Part shown: one piece after another, positions 18,337 through 33,121 of the stretch
How positions within the stretch are numbered: position 1 is the stretch's first letter
How the letters are laid out: the number at the start of each line of letters is the position of its first letter
From: Skermanella mucosa
GTDB lineage: Bacteria; Pseudomonadota; Alphaproteobacteria; Azospirillales; Azospirillaceae
Reading direction: 5' to 3'
Length of the DNA: 64,000 nucleotides
NCBI RefSeq assembly: GCF_016765655.2
Contig: NZ_CP086108.1
Location: 124,001-188,000 of the forward strand
The notes under the pieces: model-generated
What the model was told of the DNA's origin: nothing
Seen by the model: only the letters and a program-made list of their open reading frames with translations
Databases searched by the model: none
Made by a program: the position numbers and the translations under genes

Positions 18337-19668
18337 TCAGGTGGTGGCCGAGCCGACCGGCTGGGCCTGACCGACGTTGGCGAGGCGGTATTCCTGCTCG
18401 TTCCGGGCGTGGTGGCGGGCCAGCATCGGCCGCAGGATCACGATGGCGCAGGTGGCGGACATGAGGTCCATGATCGCGACGGTGTAGAGCACGGTGGACC
18501 AGGTGCCGGTGGCTTCCATCAGGATGTTGCCGAGCGGGACCATCAGGGCCGCGATACCCTTGGCGCAGTACAGGAGGCCGTAGATCTTGCCCACATGCTT
18601 GGTGCCGAAGGCGTCGCCGGCGGTGGCGCTGAAGAGGCTGTAGACTTCGCCCCAGGCCAGGAACACGACGCCGCTGAGGATCAGGAAGGCGTAGGGGTTG
18701 TGGCCGAAGTAACCCAGCGCGATGATGCCGATGCCTTCCATGGTGAAGGCGATGAACATGGTCTTCTCACGGCCGATATGGTCCGAGATCCAGCCGAAGA
18801 GGGGACGCGACAGGCCGTTCATGACCCGGTCGAGCATCAGCGCGAAGGGCAGGGCGGCCATGGTGAAGAAGTAGAGGTTGACCGGGAATTCCTTGACGCC
18901 CAGGTCGTGGGCGATCAGGCCGAGCTGGGCCACCGCCATAAGGCCGCCGGTGACCGTCAGGGTGAACATGACCAGCATCGTCCAGAACACCGGGGTGCGC
19001 AGGGCTTCGCTGAGCGTGTAGTCGCGGCGGGACTGGGACAACTTCGTGGAGTACTTGACCTCGCCCTTCTGCGGCGACCGCAGGAACCAGGCCACGGCGA
19101 AGATGACGATGCCCTGGATGGCGCCGAAGTAGAAGAAGGCGGTCTGGTAGCCGCTCGCCGCGATCACGGCGGCGATCGGCAGGATGGTCAGGGCCGAGCC
19201 GGCACCGTAGCCGCCGGCGGTCAGGCCGACCGCCAGGCCGCGGCGATCCGGGAACCACTTCAGCGCGTTGTTGATGCAGGTCGAATAGACGCAGCCGACG
19301 CCCATGCCGCCGACCGCGGCGCCGACATAGAAGCCGGTCAGGGTGGTGGCGTAGGAGTTGATGATCCAGGAGAGGCCGACCAGCACGCCGCCGATGGCGA
19401 CCATCACGCGCGGGCCGTATTTATCGATGAAATAACCCTCGATGGGGGTCAGCCAGGTCTGGACGACGACGAAGATCGTGAAGGCGGCCTGGATCGAGGC
19501 GCGAGTCCATCCATAGGTCGCCTGGATTTCCGGCACGAACAGCGTCCAGGCATATTGGATGTTAGCCGTCGCCACCATACAGATCACGCCGACGGCGAGT
19601 TGGATCCAGCGCATGCGGGCGGAATCCGGAGCCCGGGTCCTTCCCTGTTGATCTACCGATGTATGCAT
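18337..19668 (-). CDS. OxlT-type MFS transporter (oxalate/formate antiporter family)
   Basis: This 443-residue protein has twelve predicted helices. The N-terminal half shows features of the oxalate/formate antiporter (OFA) group: NIQYAWTLFVPEIQATYGW, FTIFVVVQTWLTPIEGYFID and the MFS motif A-like DKYGPR. OFA members exchange small carboxylates, classically oxalate for formate. The start at 19668 has GGAGGAAATGTCC ahead of it; the frame is open for 75 codons upstream but that stretch is intergenic in character. A 33-base extended palindrome lies 126-158 bases upstream. No oxalyl-CoA decarboxylase is near, so the substrate is unsettled. Confidence 0.88.
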   Translation of the reverse strand: MHTSVDQQGRTRAPDSARMRWIQLAVGVICMVATANIQYAWTLFVPEIQATYGWTRASIQAAFTIFVVVQTWLTPIEGYFIDKYGPRVMVAIGGVLVGLSWIINSYATTLTGFYVGAAVGGMGVGCVYSTCINNALKWFPDRRGLAVGLTAGGYGAGSALTILPIAAVIAASGYQTAFFYFGAIQGIVIFAVAWFLRSPQKGEVKYSTKLSQSRRDYTLSEALRTPVFWTMLVMFTLTVTGGLMAVAQLGLIAHDLGVKEFPVNLYFFTMAALPFALMLDRVMNGLSRPLFGWISDHIGREKTMFIAFTMEGIGIIALGYFGHNPYAFLILSGVVFLAWGEVYSLFSATAGDAFGTKHVGKIYGLLYCAKGIAALMVPLGNILMEATGTWSTVLYTVAIMDLMSATCAIVILRPMLARHHARNEQEYRLANVGQAQPVGSATT

Positions 19669-19801
19669 CGGACATTTCCTCCGTGTGGATGGACGACAAT
19701 TGGTCCGGTGTTTTTTGTTCTTCCGGAGGGCTTTGATCCCGCTTCGGCAGCCCTTGGACCTTCCGGTTCCCGGCTGCGACAACGTGACGCCCTCTGGTGT
19801 C

Positions 19802-19818
19802 TGGTATATTGAATGCCA
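19802..19818. promoter_or_regulatory. Candidate operator 1 (TGGTATATTGAATGCCA)
   Basis: A 17-bp palindrome, TGGTAT-N5-ATGCCA, is nested in a longer inverted repeat whose outer arms are CTGGTGT (19794-19800) and ACACCAG (19820-19826). It lies 134 bases upstream of the OxlT-like gene. Three near-copies occur at 20099, 21512 and 22715. Confidence 0.6.
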
Positions 19819-20098
19819 AACACCAGCTGGGATGCAAATGGTTTTCTGATTTTTCCACGATGTGGAACGATTATTTTCTGCCGGTCGGGACAATCGGTTG
19901 AAATAGAAACCAATTCCCCGGCATCAGGGAGTATGCCGGACGACTATGCCGCGATTCCAGCGGCTGCCGGCTGGGCGGATCCGAGAGGCGCCAGGATTTG
20001 AAGAGGCCGGTCGAATACCGCGCGGAAGGGGATCGGGACCGGAGTTTTACTTGCGGGCACGGCAAAGCCAGCCCTGCCGTGGATGCAAAGCTGACCTC

Positions 20099-20115
20099 TG
20101 GTATTCTGTATTCCA
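20099..20115. promoter_or_regulatory. Candidate operator 2 (TGGTATTCTGTATTCCA)
   Basis: This is a 17-bp palindrome of the same type, TGGTAT-N5-ATTCCA, flanked by C and G to give CTGG...CCAG. It ends 88 bases before the start of the 63-aa ORF. Confidence 0.55.
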
Positions 20116-20203
20116 GGTCACTTGATGTCCGCTTGCCCCGTCGTTATGTTGCTATGCAGCAAACGACACCGGTGCACCGCCTCAGACCAAGGGAACCTGG
20201 AAA

Positions 20204-20395
20204 ATGCTTAAGAACTCCGACTTCCTCCTCACCCTCATGGCTTTCGCCGGCCTCGTGACTCACGCCCTGACTTCCGGTTCCGCCTGGCCGTTCTCCGCTT
20301 CCGCCGACGAGGACGAGGAAGACGGCATCTTCTGGACATCCGACCGGCTGTCCCAGAGCGGCGAAGGTCACCAGCGACCGTTCTGGATCGAGTGA
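20204..20395 (+). CDS. Small hypothetical protein with one membrane or signal segment
   Basis: This is a 63-residue protein of unknown function. An N-terminal hydrophobic stretch (FLLTLMAFAGLVTHALTSG, residues about 7-25) could be a TM anchor or an uncleaved signal; the rest is acidic (ADEDEEDGIFW) with a polar tail. The ATG follows CTGGAAA. Candidate operator 2 lies upstream and a small minus-strand ORF converges on its 3' end five bases away. Its operator places it with the OxlT-like, DUF6494 and CBS genes, and it may be a small stress or transport accessory. Confidence 0.55.
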   Translation: MLKNSDFLLTLMAFAGLVTHALTSGSAWPFSASADEDEEDGIFWTSDRLSQSGEGHQRPFWIE

Positions 20396-20399
20396 TCCG

Positions 20400-20567
20400 T
20401 CAAAAGCTGGTCCATACCATTCGGGTCAGGTCGGGTCCGGGCGATCCGGCCAGCAGCAGGACGGCCCCGTGGCACAGCCCGCTCAGCACACCGAACCACA
20501 GGGTGGTGACCAGCACCTTCCGGTGTGTGCCGCCGGCCGGGGCGTCCTGTAATTTTCTGATATGCAC
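20400..20567 (-). CDS. Small hypothetical membrane protein (55 aa)
   Basis: The GTG start is preceded by GGGAGGGAGC, one of the strongest ribosome sites in the window. The product, beginning MHIRKLQDAPAGGTHRKV, has one TM helix (LVTTLWFGVLSGLCHGAVLL, residues about 19-38). The third codon positions are G/C-rich, as in its neighbours. An A+T-rich stretch at 20570-20640 fits a promoter. It is too short to assign; it might be a small transporter partner or a stress peptide. Confidence 0.55.
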   Translation of the reverse strand: MHIRKLQDAPAGGTHRKVLVTTLWFGVLSGLCHGAVLLLAGSPGPDLTRMVWTSF

Positions 20568-20713
20568 GCTCCCTCCCACTTCCTTCTTATTATCTGTTTC
20601 ATCTTCAACGGACCTGATTGCAAACGCAACCGGCTCCTTTACTTACCCGCCCCCTTTCCCGACCAGCGGAATGGGGTTCTGAGGCGCGGCATCGCCGCCG
20701 GCTTTTTCGTCTC

Positions 20714-21517
20714 CTAGGCCATGTCCGCAGGGACGGCCGGCACGACGCAGGGGCAGTACCCGGCACCCTCGGGTATGCGAAGCTCCGCGCCGGCGGATGT
20801 TTCGATCCATTCCGGCACGATCCTGACCAGCGGCTGCCGCATCGCCGTCTCGACCGCCTCCGCGACGGTTCGGCTGGTGGCGAGACGCATCAGGTTCATC
20901 CGGGTGGCGAAGATCAGGCGCACCGCGCCGGCATCAGCAGCCTCGATGATTTCCGCCGGACGTCCCCATCGGCAACTCACGATCTCGGACCCGTCGGGTT
21001 CCGCCTGCTGGCCGGGTGGTACCGCCGCGATGAAGAAGACCGTATCGAAGCGCCTGGGGCGCACGGCCGGCGTCACCCAGTGTCCGAAAGCGACGAGGCG
21101 GTCGTCCGCGGGAACCAGTCCCTCCGCCTCGATCACGGAGCCGAAGGTGATGTCTCCGGACAGGAGCCGGGCGCGGTAGCGCGCCACAAGATCGGCGCAG
21201 CGGGCGGGGTCGGGCAGGGCGCCGTCATGCCGCCGCGCCAGCAGGATACCGCATTCCTCGAAAGTCTCCCGGATTGCCGCCAGCCGGGCGGGATGCAGGC
21301 CGCCGCCGGGAATTCCGGTGGGGTGGCGATCCTCCGCGGCAAGGCATCCTCCCGGAAAGACCAGTGCGCCCGGTGCGAAACCGAGCCCGGCGTGGCGTTC
21401 GATCATCAGGGTTTCGAGCCCGCCCGGCGCGTCGCGCAGCAGGATCAGGGTCGCCGCCGGGCGCGGGGCCGCAGACGCCTTGGGGCCATCGTCGGGTGTC
21501 TTGCGTATTGTTTGCAT
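20714..21517 (-). CDS. Nudix hydrolase
   Basis: This is a hydrolase of about 267 residues that cleaves nucleoside diphosphates linked to another moiety. The Nudix box is split by an insertion: GGCLAAE, a loop of about 20 residues, then RETFEECGILL, the REx2EEx2GI core. This spaced form resembles the long NUDT8/NUDT19-type proteins rather than MutT. The likely start is the ATG at 21517, which falls within the palindrome at 21512-21528; the frame is open to a GTG at 21559, but with no ribosome site there either. If the ATG is right, the operator overlaps the start codon. Confidence 0.85.
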   Translation of the reverse strand: MQTIRKTPDDGPKASAAPRPAATLILLRDAPGGLETLMIERHAGLGFAPGALVFPGGCLAAEDRHPTGIPGGGLHPARLAAIRETFEECGILLARRHDGALPDPARCADLVARYRARLLSGDITFGSVIEAEGLVPADDRLVAFGHWVTPAVRPRRFDTVFFIAAVPPGQQAEPDGSEIVSCRWGRPAEIIEAADAGAVRLIFATRMNLMRLATSRTVAEAVETAMRQPLVRIVPEWIETSAGAELRIPEGAGYCPCVVPAVPADMA

Positions 21518-21528
21518 ACCGTACACCA
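21512..21528. promoter_or_regulatory. Candidate operator 3, between Nudix and DUF6494 genes
   Basis: Read on the minus strand it is TGGTGTACGGTATGCAA, agreeing with TGGYAT-N5-ATRCCA at all but two positions. It overlaps the likely start codon of the Nudix gene and is 109 bases upstream of the DUF6494 gene, so it could serve both. Confidence 0.45.
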
Positions 21529-21636
21529 CATGCCAGAAGGAAAGGGTAGTACGATGCACGGACTTTGTGCAAGGTTGATTATTGAAGCAGCAAATCAGTA
21601 CCGTTCAGGGTGAACGGGGGACAGGGAGAAGACTGG

Positions 21637-21843
21637 ATGGATCCGGACACCTTCAACATGGAAGTTCGCAAGTTTCTCAAGGTCGTCGGGGTGACTTCCC
21701 AGCGCGAGATCGAGGCCGCGGTGGATCGGGCGATCAGGTCGGGCCGGATCAAGGGCGGCGACACCCTGTCCGCCAAGGTCGTGCTGACCATCGACGGCAT
21801 CGACCTGCGCCACGAGATCGACGGTGAGATCGAACTCGGCTGA
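21637..21843 (+). CDS. DUF6494 family protein
   Basis: This 68-residue protein matches DUF6494 over its whole length: MDPDTFNMEVRKFLKVVGVT, then SQREIEAAVDRAIRSGRIKG, and the strand-rich tail DLRHEIDGEIELG. It is soluble, alpha then beta, and of unknown function. GGGAGAAG lies just before the ATG; an in-frame ATG nine codons earlier has no such site. It faces the CBS-BON gene across a long hairpin. Confidence 0.8.
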   Translation: MDPDTFNMEVRKFLKVVGVTSQREIEAAVDRAIRSGRIKGGDTLSAKVVLTIDGIDLRHEIDGEIELG

Positions 21844-21861
21844 CGCCGTTTGAAAGGACCC

Positions 21862-21913
21862 GGGCCGGCAGGTTCCGAGCCGCGCCTGAGTGCGGCCCGG
21901 AACCTGCCGGCCC
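21862..21913. terminator. Long hairpin between convergent genes
   Basis: GGGCCGGCAGGTTCCG (21862-21877) and its exact complement (21898-21913) form a perfect 16-bp stem; inside, GCCGC and GCGGC can pair further. It sits between the stops of the DUF6494 (21843) and CBS-BON (21930) genes. There is no T-tract, but position and stem suit a bidirectional terminator or transcript-end protector. Confidence 0.6.
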
Positions 21914-21929
21914 TAGCGGGTGCCGACGG

Positions 21930-22643
21930 TTACCAGCCCACGAATCCTTCCGCGACCGGATCGACCACGTCGATATGGTCCACGACGTCCCGGACGCCCG
22001 GGATCGTCCGCGCGCCGACCACGAGCGCCTGCCGCTGGGATTCGGTCCGCACGGCGCCCCAGAGATGGACGACGCCGTCCTTCACCACGACGTTCTCGCC
22101 GAAGTCCGGCGCCCAGGGCTGGTCGGCATAGGCTTTCAGCACCCGCTCCCGGATCGTCTTGTCGTCCGCCGACGGGGCGGCCGTTCCGGGTTCCAGGGTC
22201 GTCAACATGCGCATCAGGTTCGCGCGGCTGATGATGCCGACCACCTGATGGTCGCGGGTGACCGGAACCCGCTTGATCCGGCGGCTCTCCATCAGCTCGA
22301 CCACCTCGTTGAGGGCGGCGTCCTCGTCGACGCTGATCACGTTGGCGCTCATCACGTCGCGGACGGTCCGGCCGTGCTGCTTGGTGAACGCGTCCGCCTG
22401 CGACGAGGCGCTCGCGACGAGGCCGAGCCACCAGGAGCCGCCGCCTTTGCCCTGGGTCTCGGTCCCGGTTTCGGCCCGCCGCAGCAGGTCGCCCTCGCTG
22501 ATGACGCCGATGACGCGGCCCTGACCGTCGACGACGGGCATGCCGCTGATCCGGTGCTCGAGCATCCGCTTCGCCGCTTCCGCGACGGTACTGTCCGCAT
22601 CGATCGTGATGACGCTGCGGGTCATGATGTCGCCGGCCTTCAT
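21930..22643 (-). CDS. CBS-pair and BON domain protein
   Basis: This is a 237-residue soluble protein. Two CBS motifs, residues about 8-60 and 95-150, form a Bateman module that usually binds adenosyl nucleotides (HRISGMPVVDGQGRVIGVIS and KRVPVTRDHQVVGIISRANL). A C-terminal BON domain (about 165-235, with GVVHLWGAV and IPGVRDVVDHIDV) suggests membrane or ligand contact. The start is the ATG at 22643, directly behind GGAGGAAACG; an in-frame ATG four codons earlier lacks a ribosome site. Candidate operator 4 lies 72 bases upstream. Probably an energy-stress sensor; the partner is unknown. Confidence 0.88.
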   Translation of the reverse strand: MKAGDIMTRSVITIDADSTVAEAAKRMLEHRISGMPVVDGQGRVIGVISEGDLLRRAETGTETQGKGGGSWWLGLVASASSQADAFTKQHGRTVRDVMSANVISVDEDAALNEVVELMESRRIKRVPVTRDHQVVGIISRANLMRMLTTLEPGTAAPSADDKTIRERVLKAYADQPWAPDFGENVVVKDGVVHLWGAVRTESQRQALVVGARTIPGVRDVVDHIDVVDPVAEGFVGW

Positions 22644-22714
22644 CGTTTCCTCCATTCGCGTTTCTTGGGTTCGATGCAGATCGTCCGGCCAGCCACCCGG
22701 TGACGGCGGAAATC

Positions 22715-22731
22715 TGGCATACGTTATACCA
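22715..22731. promoter_or_regulatory. Candidate operator 4 (TGGCATACGTTATACCA)
   Basis: A near-perfect palindrome, TGGCAT-N5-ATACCA, lies 72 bases upstream of the CBS-BON start. As at site 1, a further half-site, ACCAG, follows seven bases later. Confidence 0.6.
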
Positions 22732-22809
22732 ACTACCAGAAATGCGCGGTGACAGTAAGGGGGCATCGAGAGACAAGGGGGCGAAGTCCCTGGGACCGAT
22801 CCTCTCTTC

Positions 22810-24780
22810 TCATTCAGTCGTGCCGCCGTGTCGGTCCGGCCAGTTTTCGATCTCGACCGGGTCGATCGCGTCGGCCGGCTCGAAGCCGAAGATCCGGCCA
22901 TAGAACCACAGTTCGGCTTCCAGGGTGCGCCGTATGGTCGAGCCCTGCCGGAACCCGTGGCCCTCGCCCTCGAAGGTGAGCAGGGCTACGGGCAACCCCT
23001 TGGCTCGGAGCGCGTCGGCCATCATGGCGGCCTGGTTGGGCGGCACGACCTTGTCGTCCAGCCCCTGGAACAGGATGACCGGGCAATCGATCTGGTCCAG
23101 GTGATGGATCGGCGACCGTGCCTCGATGATCGCGCCCGAGGTTTCCAGCGGTCCGATCAGCCGGTCCAGGTAGCGGGATTCGAACTTGTGGGTGTCGTGG
23201 TAGAGCGCCTCCAGGTCCGAGATGCCGTAATGGCTTGCCCCCGCCCGGAACCGGTCGGTGAAGGTCAGGGCGCACAGGGTGGTGTATCCGCCGGCGCTGC
23301 CCCCCGTGATCGCGATCCGCTCGGGATCTGCGAGGCCCTGGTCGACCAGGTACGTCGCGGCGGCGACGCAGTCCTCCACGTCGGCAACTCCCCAGGCGCC
23401 GTCGAGCGCGCGGCGGTACGGGGTTCCGAATCCGCTCGACCCGGCATAGTTCACGTCGACGACCGCGAAGCCGCGGCTCGTCCAGTACTGGATCGACAGG
23501 TTCAGCTGGGGCGACGCCGCCGAGGTCGGCCCGCCATGGCTCTTGACCAGCAGCGGGGGCAGGGTGCCCTCGGGCGCCCGGTGGTCGGCGTTGGTCGGAG
23601 GGTAATGGAAGGCATAGGCGGTCCGCCCGCCGGCGCTCTGGAACTCGATCGGCCGGGCGACCGAGATCGTCCCGTCCGGAAGGTCGATGGGCGCCGAGCG
23701 GCGCAGGACCCGGGCGCCTTCCGAGGTCAGCAGGGCGACCGACCCCGGCTCCCTGCCGCTCCCCGCCAGCAGCGCGATGCCGCCGCCGGCCATCGGCCTG
23801 ACCGTGCCGATCTGGTCGTAGGGAATCTCCGCGGCCGCGGGCGTCGGCCCGCCGCCGATGCCGGTAGCCAAGGACCAGAACCCGTTGCGGGTGAAGGCCG
23901 CGGCGATCAGGTCGCCGGTGAAGCCGTAGGTCGCCTGCCCGAAGTTCCAGTAGGGCCGGGCGAATTCCGCCGTCATGGGGAGGAGCGGGACCCCGGCATC
24001 GGCGCCGCTTCCCGTGCCGTTCCAGCGGACCAGGTTCCACCAGCCGCTCCGGTCCGAGACATAGTGCAGCGTGCCGGCGGGCGACCAGGACGGCTGCACG
24101 ACCGCGACATCGTCCCCGCCGTCCACCCCCAGGGGCTCGGCCAGGGTCCCGTCGTCCAGCACGTCGGCCACCATCAGCCTGGTCCCGTCCCATGGCATGT
24201 TGGGGTGGTTCCACTCGATCCAGGCCAGCCGGCCGCCATCCGGGGAGAGGCGGGGCGCCCCGTAGAAGTCGGCTCCGGTCGCGATGGTTTCCGGAATGGC
24301 CGGTTCGGGCGGCCGGGCCGGGACCGACACCAGGACATTGAGCGGCTCCCCGTTCCCGGACTCACCGTGCAGTTCGCCGACCGCGATCAGCCGCCCGCGC
24401 GGCGCGTCGAGCACCAGGTCGGCGAAGCGCCAGCCGGCGTCCCCGACGGTGACGGGAACCGGTTCCGCCCCCGCGTCCAGCCGCCAGATCCGCTGGTCGG
24501 CGAAGTTCACGAACCAGACCGTGCCGCCGGCCGCCACGTAGCTGGCGCCGCCATACTCGTGGACGCGGCTGCGGGAGGAGAACGGCGGCGGCAGCAGATC
24601 GCGGATGACACCGTCGGCGCTCGCCTTCACAATGACGCTCCGGCCCTTCTCCGCGGGCCGCCCCTCGACCCAGCAGATATCGCCGCCATCCACGCAAAGC
24701 TCGCTCAGCCCCACCGCCTCGCCGATGATCAGGTCCGTCGTGATGGGCGACTTCCAGGCTCCGTAAGGGGCAATGCGCAT
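22810..24780 (-). CDS. S9-family prolyl oligopeptidase-type serine peptidase
   Basis: This 656-residue peptidase or acylaminoacyl-peptidase has an N-terminal seven-bladed beta-propeller (about 30-400, with repeats such as APRLSPDGGRLAWIEW and VVQPSWSPAGTLHYVSD) and a C-terminal alpha/beta hydrolase (about 410-650). The catalytic Ser is in GGSAGGY, Asp in QGLDDKVVPP and His in EGEGHGFR. There is no signal peptide, so it is cytoplasmic and cleaves short peptides. The ATG at 24780 is used; upstream in-frame sequence runs into the divergent AEC gene. No function-specific neighbour. Confidence 0.92.
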   Translation of the reverse strand: MRIAPYGAWKSPITTDLIIGEAVGLSELCVDGGDICWVEGRPAEKGRSVIVKASADGVIRDLLPPPFSSRSRVHEYGGASYVAAGGTVWFVNFADQRIWRLDAGAEPVPVTVGDAGWRFADLVLDAPRGRLIAVGELHGESGNGEPLNVLVSVPARPPEPAIPETIATGADFYGAPRLSPDGGRLAWIEWNHPNMPWDGTRLMVADVLDDGTLAEPLGVDGGDDVAVVQPSWSPAGTLHYVSDRSGWWNLVRWNGTGSGADAGVPLLPMTAEFARPYWNFGQATYGFTGDLIAAAFTRNGFWSLATGIGGGPTPAAAEIPYDQIGTVRPMAGGGIALLAGSGREPGSVALLTSEGARVLRRSAPIDLPDGTISVARPIEFQSAGGRTAYAFHYPPTNADHRAPEGTLPPLLVKSHGGPTSAASPQLNLSIQYWTSRGFAVVDVNYAGSSGFGTPYRRALDGAWGVADVEDCVAAATYLVDQGLADPERIAITGGSAGGYTTLCALTFTDRFRAGASHYGISDLEALYHDTHKFESRYLDRLIGPLETSGAIIEARSPIHHLDQIDCPVILFQGLDDKVVPPNQAAMMADALRAKGLPVALLTFEGEGHGFRQGSTIRRTLEAELWFYGRIFGFEPADAIDPVEIENWPDRHGGTTE

Positions 24781-33013: not shown

Positions 33014-33121
33014 GCTGGTATCACCGATACTAGGCTATTTGCAGGGATATATCGCGCAATAAGTTTGCGCATTCGTTGGTTAACGATCCCTGAACCTCCC
33101 GCCGACCATACCGGGTTATAC

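What the first reader, a model, noticed from the sequence alone, without database searches (positions are those of the whole stretch)
19802..22731. Four copies of a 17-bp palindrome, TGGYAT-N5-ATRCCA, upstream of unlinked small genes
Sites at 19802, 20099, 21512 and 22715 share the arms TGGYAT and ATRCCA at the same spacing (the second with T at one arm position, the third with two mismatches). They precede the OxlT-like MFS gene, the 63-aa ORF, the Nudix/DUF6494 pair and the CBS-BON gene. Two also carry an extra ACCAG half-site at the same distance. Four matches in 3 kb, each in a promoter region, suggest one regulator, perhaps of the GntR or TetR type, and a local regulon of stress and small-carboxylate genes that I do not know as described.
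Basis: seen in the sequence. Interest (0 to 1): 0.72.

Follow-up and report, generated by a model that had tools for sequence, protein, structure and literature searches.

The report
GntR operators of an oxalate regulon
The repeated DNA motif marks switch sites, probably read by a family of regulator proteins encoded beside oxalate-breakdown genes, that appear to control a soil bacterium's oxalate-use genes and several tiny predicted membrane proteins together.

Summary
The four sites are real, correctly placed and far above chance (0 of 300 simulated windows hold such a cluster). In this Skermanella genome the motif also lies upstream of two paralogous GntR/FCD regulator genes (one heading oxc-frc, one divergent from panE2-like), gcl, tctC, an Nramp-type gene and five small ORFs. 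The window's MFS is a true oxalate/formate antiporter (TIGR04259). Of 33 representative regulator relatives outside Skermanella, 25 have the motif upstream; 200 column-permuted matrices reach at most 3. In 79 related loci, 174 sites lie between genes, 5 inside. Half-sites TGGYAT/ATRCCA largely follow a 7-bp register (69 of 88 pairs); the 17-bp palindrome is one arrangement of it. Best reading: GntR/FCD dimers bind these arrays and answer to oxalate or a product. Binding, ligand, paralogue and sign are inferred. Weakest: the Nudix/DUF6494 site. New: a small membrane-peptide family, 10 of 10 similarity-found members with the motif. Unexplained: one Skermanella assembly keeps such a site without these regulators. 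No published description appeared in the searches made.

The parts
19794..19826 (.).
   Evidence: near-invariant block in 4 of 4 Skermanella oxlT upstream regions aligned, in otherwise diverged DNA
18337..19668 (-). oxlT, oxalate/formate MFS antiporter
   Evidence: TIGR04259 equivalog, 620.8 bits, cut-off 335; S. rosea counterpart annotated oxlT
19853..19867 (.). Second palindrome TTCCACGATGTGGAA, a candidate IclR-type operator, beside the GntR operator
   Evidence: conserved in 4 of 4 Skermanella aligned; exact pattern in relatives' loci intergenic in 17 of 17 matches, at least two of them duplicate loci; close to the IclR group-1 consensus
20099..20115 (.). Operator upstream of the 63-aa ORF
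   Evidence: one mismatch to the pattern; found again in S. rosea and S. aerolata, not in S. stibiiresistens
20204..20395 (+). Small ORF, 63 aa, site about 90 bp upstream of its ATG; only weakly hydrophobic N-terminal segment
   Evidence: best 19-residue hydropathy 1.54; annotated as hypothetical protein in S. rosea; no Pfam or NCBIfam match
21512..21528 (.). Weakest site: contains the start codon of the Nudix gene and ends about 110 bp upstream of the DUF6494 ORF; followed by GCCAG
   Evidence: two mismatches; kept in S. rosea; 0 of 4 Azospirillum DUF6494 orthologues have a site within 1.5 kb
20714..21517 (-). NUDIX hydrolase gene
   Evidence: PF00293; start by comparison with the S. rosea annotation; relatives lie beside regulator and pyruvate-kinase-like genes in Azospirillum
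21637..21843 (+). DUF6494 protein
   Evidence: PF20104, 108.1 bits
21930..22643 (-). CBS-CBS-BON protein
   Evidence: PF00571 x2, PF04972
22715..22739 (.). Operator array TGGCATACGTTATACCA-ACTACCAG upstream of the CBS-BON gene
   Evidence: conserved in 4 of 4 Skermanella aligned, with two spacer bases changed in two of them, in diverged flanks
33016..33032 (.). Weak further candidate, TGGTATCACCGATACTA; not clearly part of the regulon
   Evidence: score 14.6, intergenic; one mismatch; neighbouring genes do not look like oxalate genes (by eye)

Best explanation
The sites are operators of an oxalate and glyoxylate utilisation regulon controlled by a clade of GntR/FadR-subfamily (FCD) regulators. 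In this genome the candidates are GntR-A (C3:426241-426930, first gene before oxc-frc-acyl-CoA synthetase-sucC-sucD), GntR-B (C3:400197-400871, divergent from a panE2-like gene followed by CBS, HDAC-like and transhydrogenase-like genes, the last two named by eye) and possibly the more distant GntR-C (C4:269204, after a second tctCBA-terC run). Dimers bind half-sites TGGYAT/ATRCCA laid out on a 7-bp register; two or more half-sites form an operator, and the N5 palindrome is one common arrangement. Binding of a small carboxylate or CoA thioester from oxalate metabolism to the FCD domain should change DNA binding and so switch transport (OxlT, TctABC), oxalyl-CoA decarboxylation or reduction, the glycerate route (Gcl), accessory genes and a set of small membrane peptides. 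Shown here: motif, conservation, its placement upstream of the regulators' own genes, gene content, 7-bp phasing. Inferred: that these proteins bind it, which paralogue does, the ligand, and repression relieved by the ligand as the default mode.
For: PWM from 11 C3 sites: 14 sites of score 14 or more on C3, all counted intergenic (15.8% of C3 is). Eleven are the training sites, picked with their position in view; 145512 overlaps the Nudix start and counts as intergenic only because 15 bp were trimmed from gene ends; the 3 others are intergenic. Independent of that: in 79 loci around regulator relatives (84 minus 5 duplicates) 174 sites in 257,268 bp between genes, 5 in 895,927 bp inside. Upstream regions with a site (divergent genes share regions): GntR-A-like 26/27, GntR-B-like 45/52, GNAT 13/13, TauE 12/12, CBS2 23/30, PanE2 13/17, CBS-BON 3/3, TctC 7/13, unlabelled genes 26/401. 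Non-redundant regulators outside Skermanella: 25 of 33, against mean 0.16 and maximum 3 for 200 column-permuted matrices. Of 25 FCD-regulator matches in the genome, 10 were fetched: A and B have a site nearby, the other 8 none of score 11 or more. 7-bp phasing: 69 of 88 half-site pairs in phase, random mean 5, maximum 14 in 1000. Oxc, Frc, OxlT, Gcl pass curated cut-offs. In 9 relatives picked, GntR-A/B and OxlT orthologues occur together in 7 and are both missing in 2. Sites at oxalate loci of Methylobacterium bullatum, Phyllobacterium, Paracoccus, Cupriavidus and Caballeronia.
Against: No binding or expression data. One Skermanella assembly (G001) keeps a site before a small-peptide gene but has no GntR-A/B/C orthologue (best match 35%); it is a single contig, so plasmids may be missing, or another regulator reads that site. 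Eight of 33 representative regulators have no site of score 14 upstream. OxlT upstream regions carry a site of score 14 in only 9 of 37 cases, SucC 3/16, Frc 3/35, acyl-CoA synthetase 1/14, Gcl 0/17, Nudix 0/23, Oxc 0/27 (Oxc usually follows the regulator directly). The M. radiotolerans regulator-oxlT locus has none of score 13. At 3 mismatches the pattern TGGTATACNNNATACCA is no commoner than its reversed control. The DUF6494 site is not conserved in Azospirillum.
Confidence: 0.85

Rival explanations
1. The sites belong to a different, chromosomally encoded regulator with a similar half-site; GntR-A/B only share or have borrowed the motif.
For: G001 has the site but no GntR-A/B/C; most chromosomal small-peptide promoters have a stereotyped variant ending in a -35-like TTTGACA (by eye).
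Against: Sites track the A/B clade across genera (25 of 33) and concentrate at oxalate-linked genes. None of the 8 other FCD regulators examined (of 23 others in the genome) has a site in its flanks.
Confidence: 0.1
2. The operators are activator sites: GntR bound just upstream of the -35 box recruits polymerase when oxalate is present.
For: In most chromosomal small-peptide promoters the array ends at a TTTGACA box about 18 bp before CATATTT (read by eye).
Against: Most FCD regulators of known function are repressors (recalled, apart from NanR). Other sites lie at varied distances from their genes. A site over the -35 box fits repression equally well.
Confidence: 0.3
3. Chance palindromes, or repeats and mobile elements, with no regulatory role.
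For: Low-stringency matches are no commoner than the control.
Against: 0 of 300 simulated windows hold such a cluster; 174 sites between genes against 5 inside; footprints conserved within diverged DNA.
Confidence: 0.01
4. A TetR-family regulator reads the palindrome.
For: A short palindrome of this type could suit TetR in principle (recalled).
Against: The regulator genes that have the motif upstream are GntR/FCD. Half-site repeats at 7 bp resemble the direct-repeat operators described for NanR and NagQ. TetR genes were not searched for.
Confidence: 0.02

Closest known systems
NanR of E. coli (GntR/FCD) and its (GGTATA)3 operator
   Same: FCD-type GntR; operator of tandem GGTAT-like half-sites; weak sequence match (NCBIfam NF003011 61.8 and 70.7 bits; PDB 6on4 E 0.00095; Foldseek E 5.4e-07)
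   Different: Curated NanR cut-off (260) not met; [quoted passage not shown] repeats here are 7 bp apart and of mixed orientation; oxalate genes, not sialic acid genes
FadR-subfamily GntR motifs with extra half-sites (Suvorova et al. 2015, PMC4494728; passages and one section read)
   Same: Palindromic TKGT/ACMA boxes; weaker third box 7-12 nt from the centre reported for 13 FadR-subfamily groups
   Different: Typical GT-AC distance is 3 or 2 nt; here the N5 palindrome (75 pairs) is about as common as the short one (94 pairs) and boxes follow a 7-bp register; 'oxalate' has 0 occurrences there (listing)
NagQ (HutC subfamily), direct repeats TGGTATT
   Same: Direct-repeat half-site nearly identical to TGGTAT
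   Different: HutC rather than FCD effector domain; GlcNAc genes (recalled)
Oxalate assimilation modules of Cupriavidus necator (PMC7486775, passages read) and Methylobacterium (recalled)
   Same: frc-oxc, CoA-acylating glyoxylate dehydrogenase (ApbA2), gcl glycerate route
   Different: 'gntr' has 0 occurrences in that text
PmiR of P. aeruginosa, Atu1419/VanR, TM0439 (solved FCD-GntR structures)
   Same: Among the closest folds to the GntR-A model
   Different: 22-27% identity, other pathways

Membership tests
GntR family, FadR subfamily (FCD) | N-terminal GntR winged helix (PF00392) | tested here: met
   GntR-A 49.9 bits and GntR-B 51 bits, cut-off 27
GntR family, FadR subfamily (FCD) | C-terminal FCD domain (PF07729) | tested here: met
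   GntR-A 83.7 and GntR-B 95.6 bits, cut-off 24.3; model of GntR-A mean pLDDT 88, best solved folds are GntR regulators
GntR family, FadR subfamily (FCD) | Conserved His-rich ligand/metal pocket | tested here: inconclusive
   N143, H147, H169, H191, H213 invariant in 24 aligned members and in at least 97% of 75; that these are the metal ligands is recalled; GntR-C departs at several
GntR family, FadR subfamily (FCD) | These proteins bind the motif | not testable with these tools
   Only association: placement upstream of their genes, co-occurrence, conservation
NanR | NCBIfam NanR score cut-off | tested here: not met
   61.8 and 70.7 bits against 260
NanR | 32-residue N-terminal extension for cooperativity | tested here: not met
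   GntR-A has 16 residues before its first helix in the model; NanR feature from passages of PMC8012715
NanR | Tandem GGTATA repeats | tested here: inconclusive
   Direct GGYAT repeats at 7 bp are frequent (89 pairs in intergenic DNA), but inverted arrangements are as frequent
Phosphonate-associated regulator TIGR03338 | Curated cut-off | tested here: not met
   104 and 116.5 bits against 271.5
Oxalate degradation module | Oxc, Frc, OxlT orthologues | tested here: met
   TIGR03254 1006.1 bits (739.4), TIGR03253 747.1 (504.2), TIGR04259 620.8 (335)
TetR regulator | TetR gene tied to the motif | not tested
   Not searched; the regulators that have the motif upstream are GntR/FCD

The most novel reading that the evidence does not exclude
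A dedicated clade of FCD regulators reads a 7-bp-phased code of mixed-orientation half-sites, and through it the oxalate response of these bacteria includes a previously undescribed set of 61-73-aa membrane peptides. In Skermanella some peptide promoters also carry an element shared with phasin-like genes, so oxalate supply and polyhydroxybutyrate state would be integrated on small membrane proteins, perhaps partners of OxlT or TctAB.
Probability: 0.3. Interest if true: 0.75.

Novelty: new variant of a known kind. Interest (0 to 1): 0.58.

Why it matters
Oxalate is a large carbon pool made by plants and fungi, and its breakdown by soil bacteria feeds the oxalate-carbonate pathway (recalled). 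The enzymes are known, but no regulator of oxc-frc appeared in the listings of eight searches; some searches showed only the top 15 of 62, 12 of 98 and 12 of 50 papers, so this is not proof of absence. This work names candidate regulators and their operators in alpha- and betaproteobacteria, predicts the regulon gene by gene, and adds accessory genes (CBS-BON, CBS, GNAT, TauE, Nramp-type, small membrane peptides) whose role in oxalate use can be tested at once.

Tried and rejected
Sigma-54 reading (GG-N10-GC inside some sites): considered by eye and dropped, because orientation and the GC dinucleotide are inconsistent between sites. Sigma-70 scan of 19600-22900: 0 promoter-like sites, so promoters were judged only by eye and conservation. 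Low-stringency genome scan (3 mismatches): no enrichment over the control, 47 and 46 against 65 and 73, so only high-scoring sites are used. DUF6494 as a conserved target: not supported in Azospirillum. Nudix as a conserved target: 0 of 23, although it is a recurrent neighbour. A script label 'MFS77' was wrong: that protein is pyruvate-kinase-like, below the curated cut-offs (542.7 bits against 642). Structural second look by VIA-align was not available; Foldseek was used. Literature: eight searches for an oxalate regulator; sought the GntR motif paper and oxalate pathway papers. In one search one paper held all four terms, and in its passages the GntR genes are not linked to oxc. Passages of seven papers were seen (for PMC4494728 also one whole section): PMC4494728, PMC7486775, PMC12927642 (only reference-list passages matched), PMC8305402, PMC10192776, PMC8222616, PMC8012715. 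All other papers were seen as search listings only. An Azospirillum OX-1 paper (PMC11461619) is not held. RegPrecise could not be consulted.
Full report
WHAT WAS CLAIMED AND WHETHER IT IS THERE. The four sites are at 19802, 20099, 21512 and 22715 as stated. Two match TGGYAT-N5-ATRCCA exactly, one has one mismatch and one has two. A cluster of this quality within 3 kb was reached by 0 of 300 Markov-1 sequences of the window's length and composition (observed score 9, simulated maximum 3). The genome is 7.84 Mb in five contigs and the window lies on C3 (434,629 bases). The best match among plasmid records is Skermanella rosea pSR-1 (92.0% identity, 99% of a 6.6-kb query; the tool may leave out nearer records).

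GENOME-WIDE PICTURE. With up to one mismatch the genome has 31 sites against 12 for the reversed pattern, 10 of them on C3 (5.5% of the genome); all three exact matches are on C3. A matrix from 11 C3 sites finds 14 separate sites of score 14 or more on C3 (about 1.1 expected under a Markov-1 model). All 14 are counted intergenic although only 15.8% of C3 is. Two limits: 11 of the 14 are the training sites, picked with their position in view, and 145512 overlaps the Nudix start and passes only because 15 bp were trimmed from gene ends (one search lists it as inside). Outside the window, sites lie upstream of a GNAT-TauE pair (72024), tctC (76428), a 66-aa ORF and, divergently, a pyruvate-kinase-like gene (76951), glyoxylate carboligase gcl (83109), a 65-aa ORF (285692), an Nramp-type transporter (287494), in the divergent region of GntR-B and a panE2-like gene (401139), and upstream of GntR-A-oxc-frc (426132). 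Site 237189 lies between an HbpS-like and an aconitase-family gene. On C1 two sites precede further small ORFs. On C4 one lies between a 266-aa gene and a second tctC, ahead of tctBA, terC, GntR-C and a further CBS-BON gene. At three mismatches the pattern is not enriched, so weak matches carry no weight.

THE PATHWAY. The window's MFS protein passes the oxalate/formate antiporter equivalog model with 620.8 bits (cut-off 335). Oxc and Frc next to GntR-A pass theirs (1006.1 and 747.1 bits), and Gcl passes with 1155.6 bits (cut-off 711.2). A ketopantoate-reductase-family gene (panE2-like by name only), transhydrogenase-like genes (by eye), acyl-CoA synthetase, sucCD and a pyruvate-kinase-like gene complete what looks like a known kind of oxalate and glyoxylate metabolism (pathway from passages of PMC7486775 and recall).

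CONSERVATION. 71 loci with relatives of GntR-A were fetched from named records (Azospirillum, Xanthobacter, Ancylobacter, Aquabacter, Paracoccus, Inquilinus, Alsobacter, MAGs and others) and further loci from unnamed relatives. In 79 loci (84 minus 5 duplicates; one Planctomycetales locus left out) there are 174 sites of score 14 or more in 257,268 bp between genes and 5 in 895,927 bp inside genes. A site lies upstream of 26/27 GntR-A-like, 45/52 GntR-B-like, 13/13 GNAT, 12/12 TauE, 23/30 CBS2, 13/17 PanE2, 3/3 CBS-BON and 7/13 TctC genes, but only 9/37 OxlT, 3/16 SucC, 3/35 Frc, 1/14 acyl-CoA synthetase, 0/17 Gcl, 0/23 Nudix and 0/27 Oxc (Oxc usually lies directly after the regulator). For unlabelled genes it is 26/401. 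Divergent genes share regions, and many loci are close Azospirillum relatives, so a stricter test used 33 representatives under 85% identity and outside Skermanella: 25 have a site within 400 bp upstream, against a mean of 0.16 and a maximum of 3 for 200 column-permuted matrices. Of seven oxalate loci taken from plasmid records, six have sites (Methylobacterium bullatum, Phyllobacterium, Paracoccus alcaliphilus, Cupriavidus metallidurans, Caballeronia, Azospirillum brasilense oxlT) and the M. radiotolerans regulator-oxlT locus has none. Within Skermanella, alignments of four species show near-invariant blocks upstream of oxlT and CBS-BON in diverged flanks (own genome and S. rosea are close kin).

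ANATOMY OF THE OPERATOR. Half-sites GGYAT and ATRCC in intergenic DNA follow a 7-bp register: direct pairs at 7 bp 89 times (3 in about five times as much coding DNA), inverted pairs at offsets 3, 10, 17 and 24 (94, 75, 25 and 7 times, redundant loci included). Offset 3 is also frequent in coding DNA (49) and was left out of the test. In 30 non-redundant loci outside Skermanella 69 of 88 pairs are in phase; random placement gives a mean of 5 and a maximum of 14 in 1000 trials. Published FadR-subfamily sites often have a weaker third box 7-12 nt from the centre, and NanR and NagQ use direct repeats of TGGTATAW and TGGTATT (PMC4494728). Three NanR dimers assemble on (GGTATA)3 through an N-terminal extension (PMC8012715 passages). 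GntR-A lacks such an extension, so how several dimers would share a 7-bp-phased array is open.

THE REGULATOR. GntR-A and GntR-B (65% identical) have GntR and FCD domains. In the alignment of 24 family members N143, H147, H169, H191 and H213 are invariant. That this set forms the FCD metal or ligand site is recalled, not shown. GntR-C (48%) departs at several of these positions. The genome has 25 matches to GntR-A; 10 were fetched, and the eight besides A and B, GntR-C among them, have no site in their flanks. Nine of the 58 relatives were picked afterwards for the OxlT search: GntR-A/B and OxlT orthologues occur together in seven and are both missing in two.

SMALL MEMBRANE PEPTIDES. A profile from three small ORFs, themselves noticed through the motif, finds 13 members (61-68 aa, E at most 4.0e-10) in five Skermanella genomes. 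All 13 have a site of score 18.0-24.7 at -99 to -131. Three of the 13 are the profile's own rows and one of their sites helped train the matrix; the other 10 were found by protein similarity alone and 10 of 10 have a site, three of them in the close relative G002. That they are membrane peptides rests on hydropathy (2.44-2.86 over 19 residues). The window's 63-aa ORF (1.54) and the C3 65-aa ORF are not clearly homologous to them. Azospirillum has another small ORF under the motif. Most chromosomal promoters show TTTGACA and CATATTT-like boxes (by eye). A TGCANYGCA element at two of the three own promoters (exact matches) also occurs beside two phasin-like genes among the 10 other matches of its pattern (phasin read by eye).

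RESULTS AGAINST. G001 keeps the small-peptide site without any GntR-A/B/C orthologue. Site 21512 contains the Nudix start codon, is kept in S. rosea, and the four Azospirillum DUF6494 orthologues lack it. Site 20099 was not found in S. stibiiresistens. Nothing here shows binding, ligand or sign of regulation.

VERDICT. The sites are very probably operators of an oxalate regulon under GntR/FCD regulators: a known kind of regulation with a variant operator layout, in a pathway for which no described regulator appeared in the listings of eight literature searches.

Noticed in passing
window 19853-19867; relatives' loci L112-L114, L139, L145, L164, L178 and others: Second palindrome TTCCRC-N3-GYGGAA beside the GntR operator; 17 of 17 exact matches in relatives' loci (duplicates included) are intergenic, next to oxlT, GntR-A, panE2-like, hyi, gcl and a PPDK-like gene (by eye). 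It is close to the IclR group-1 consensus and suggests a second regulator of the same pathway.
   Followed up: partly
G000 C1:654724-654915, C1:4612270-4612455, C3:76636-76836; loci L251-L255, L260-L263, L267-L270: Family of 61-68-aa peptides with one predicted membrane segment, often ending LRKAA, 13 members, all with the operator upstream (3 of them the starting rows).
   Followed up: partly
L252 (G001): A Skermanella assembly without GntR-A/B/C still has the operator before its small-peptide gene; missing plasmids or another regulator.
   Followed up: partly
small-peptide promoters; L315, L319, L322: Element TGCANYGCA near the presumed transcription start of two small-peptide genes also occurs beside two phasin-like genes (by eye) and upstream of GntR-A; possible link to polyhydroxybutyrate control.
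   Followed up: partly
window 22732-22810: S. rosea, S. aerolata and S. stibiiresistens have a second oxlT next to the CBS-BON gene; in the window it is absent and the S9 peptidase gene follows instead.
   Followed up: partly
L145-L172 (Azospirillum): A Nudix gene recurs (23 of 79 loci) between the regulator with its pyruvate-kinase-like neighbour and PPDK-like and CBS genes, so the window's Nudix has a conserved link with oxalate clusters even without a conserved operator.
   Followed up: no
L092, G000 C4:264574-270630: Second tctCBA-terC run with GntR-C and a further CBS-BON gene; a site lies between a 266-aa gene and tctC.
   Followed up: partly
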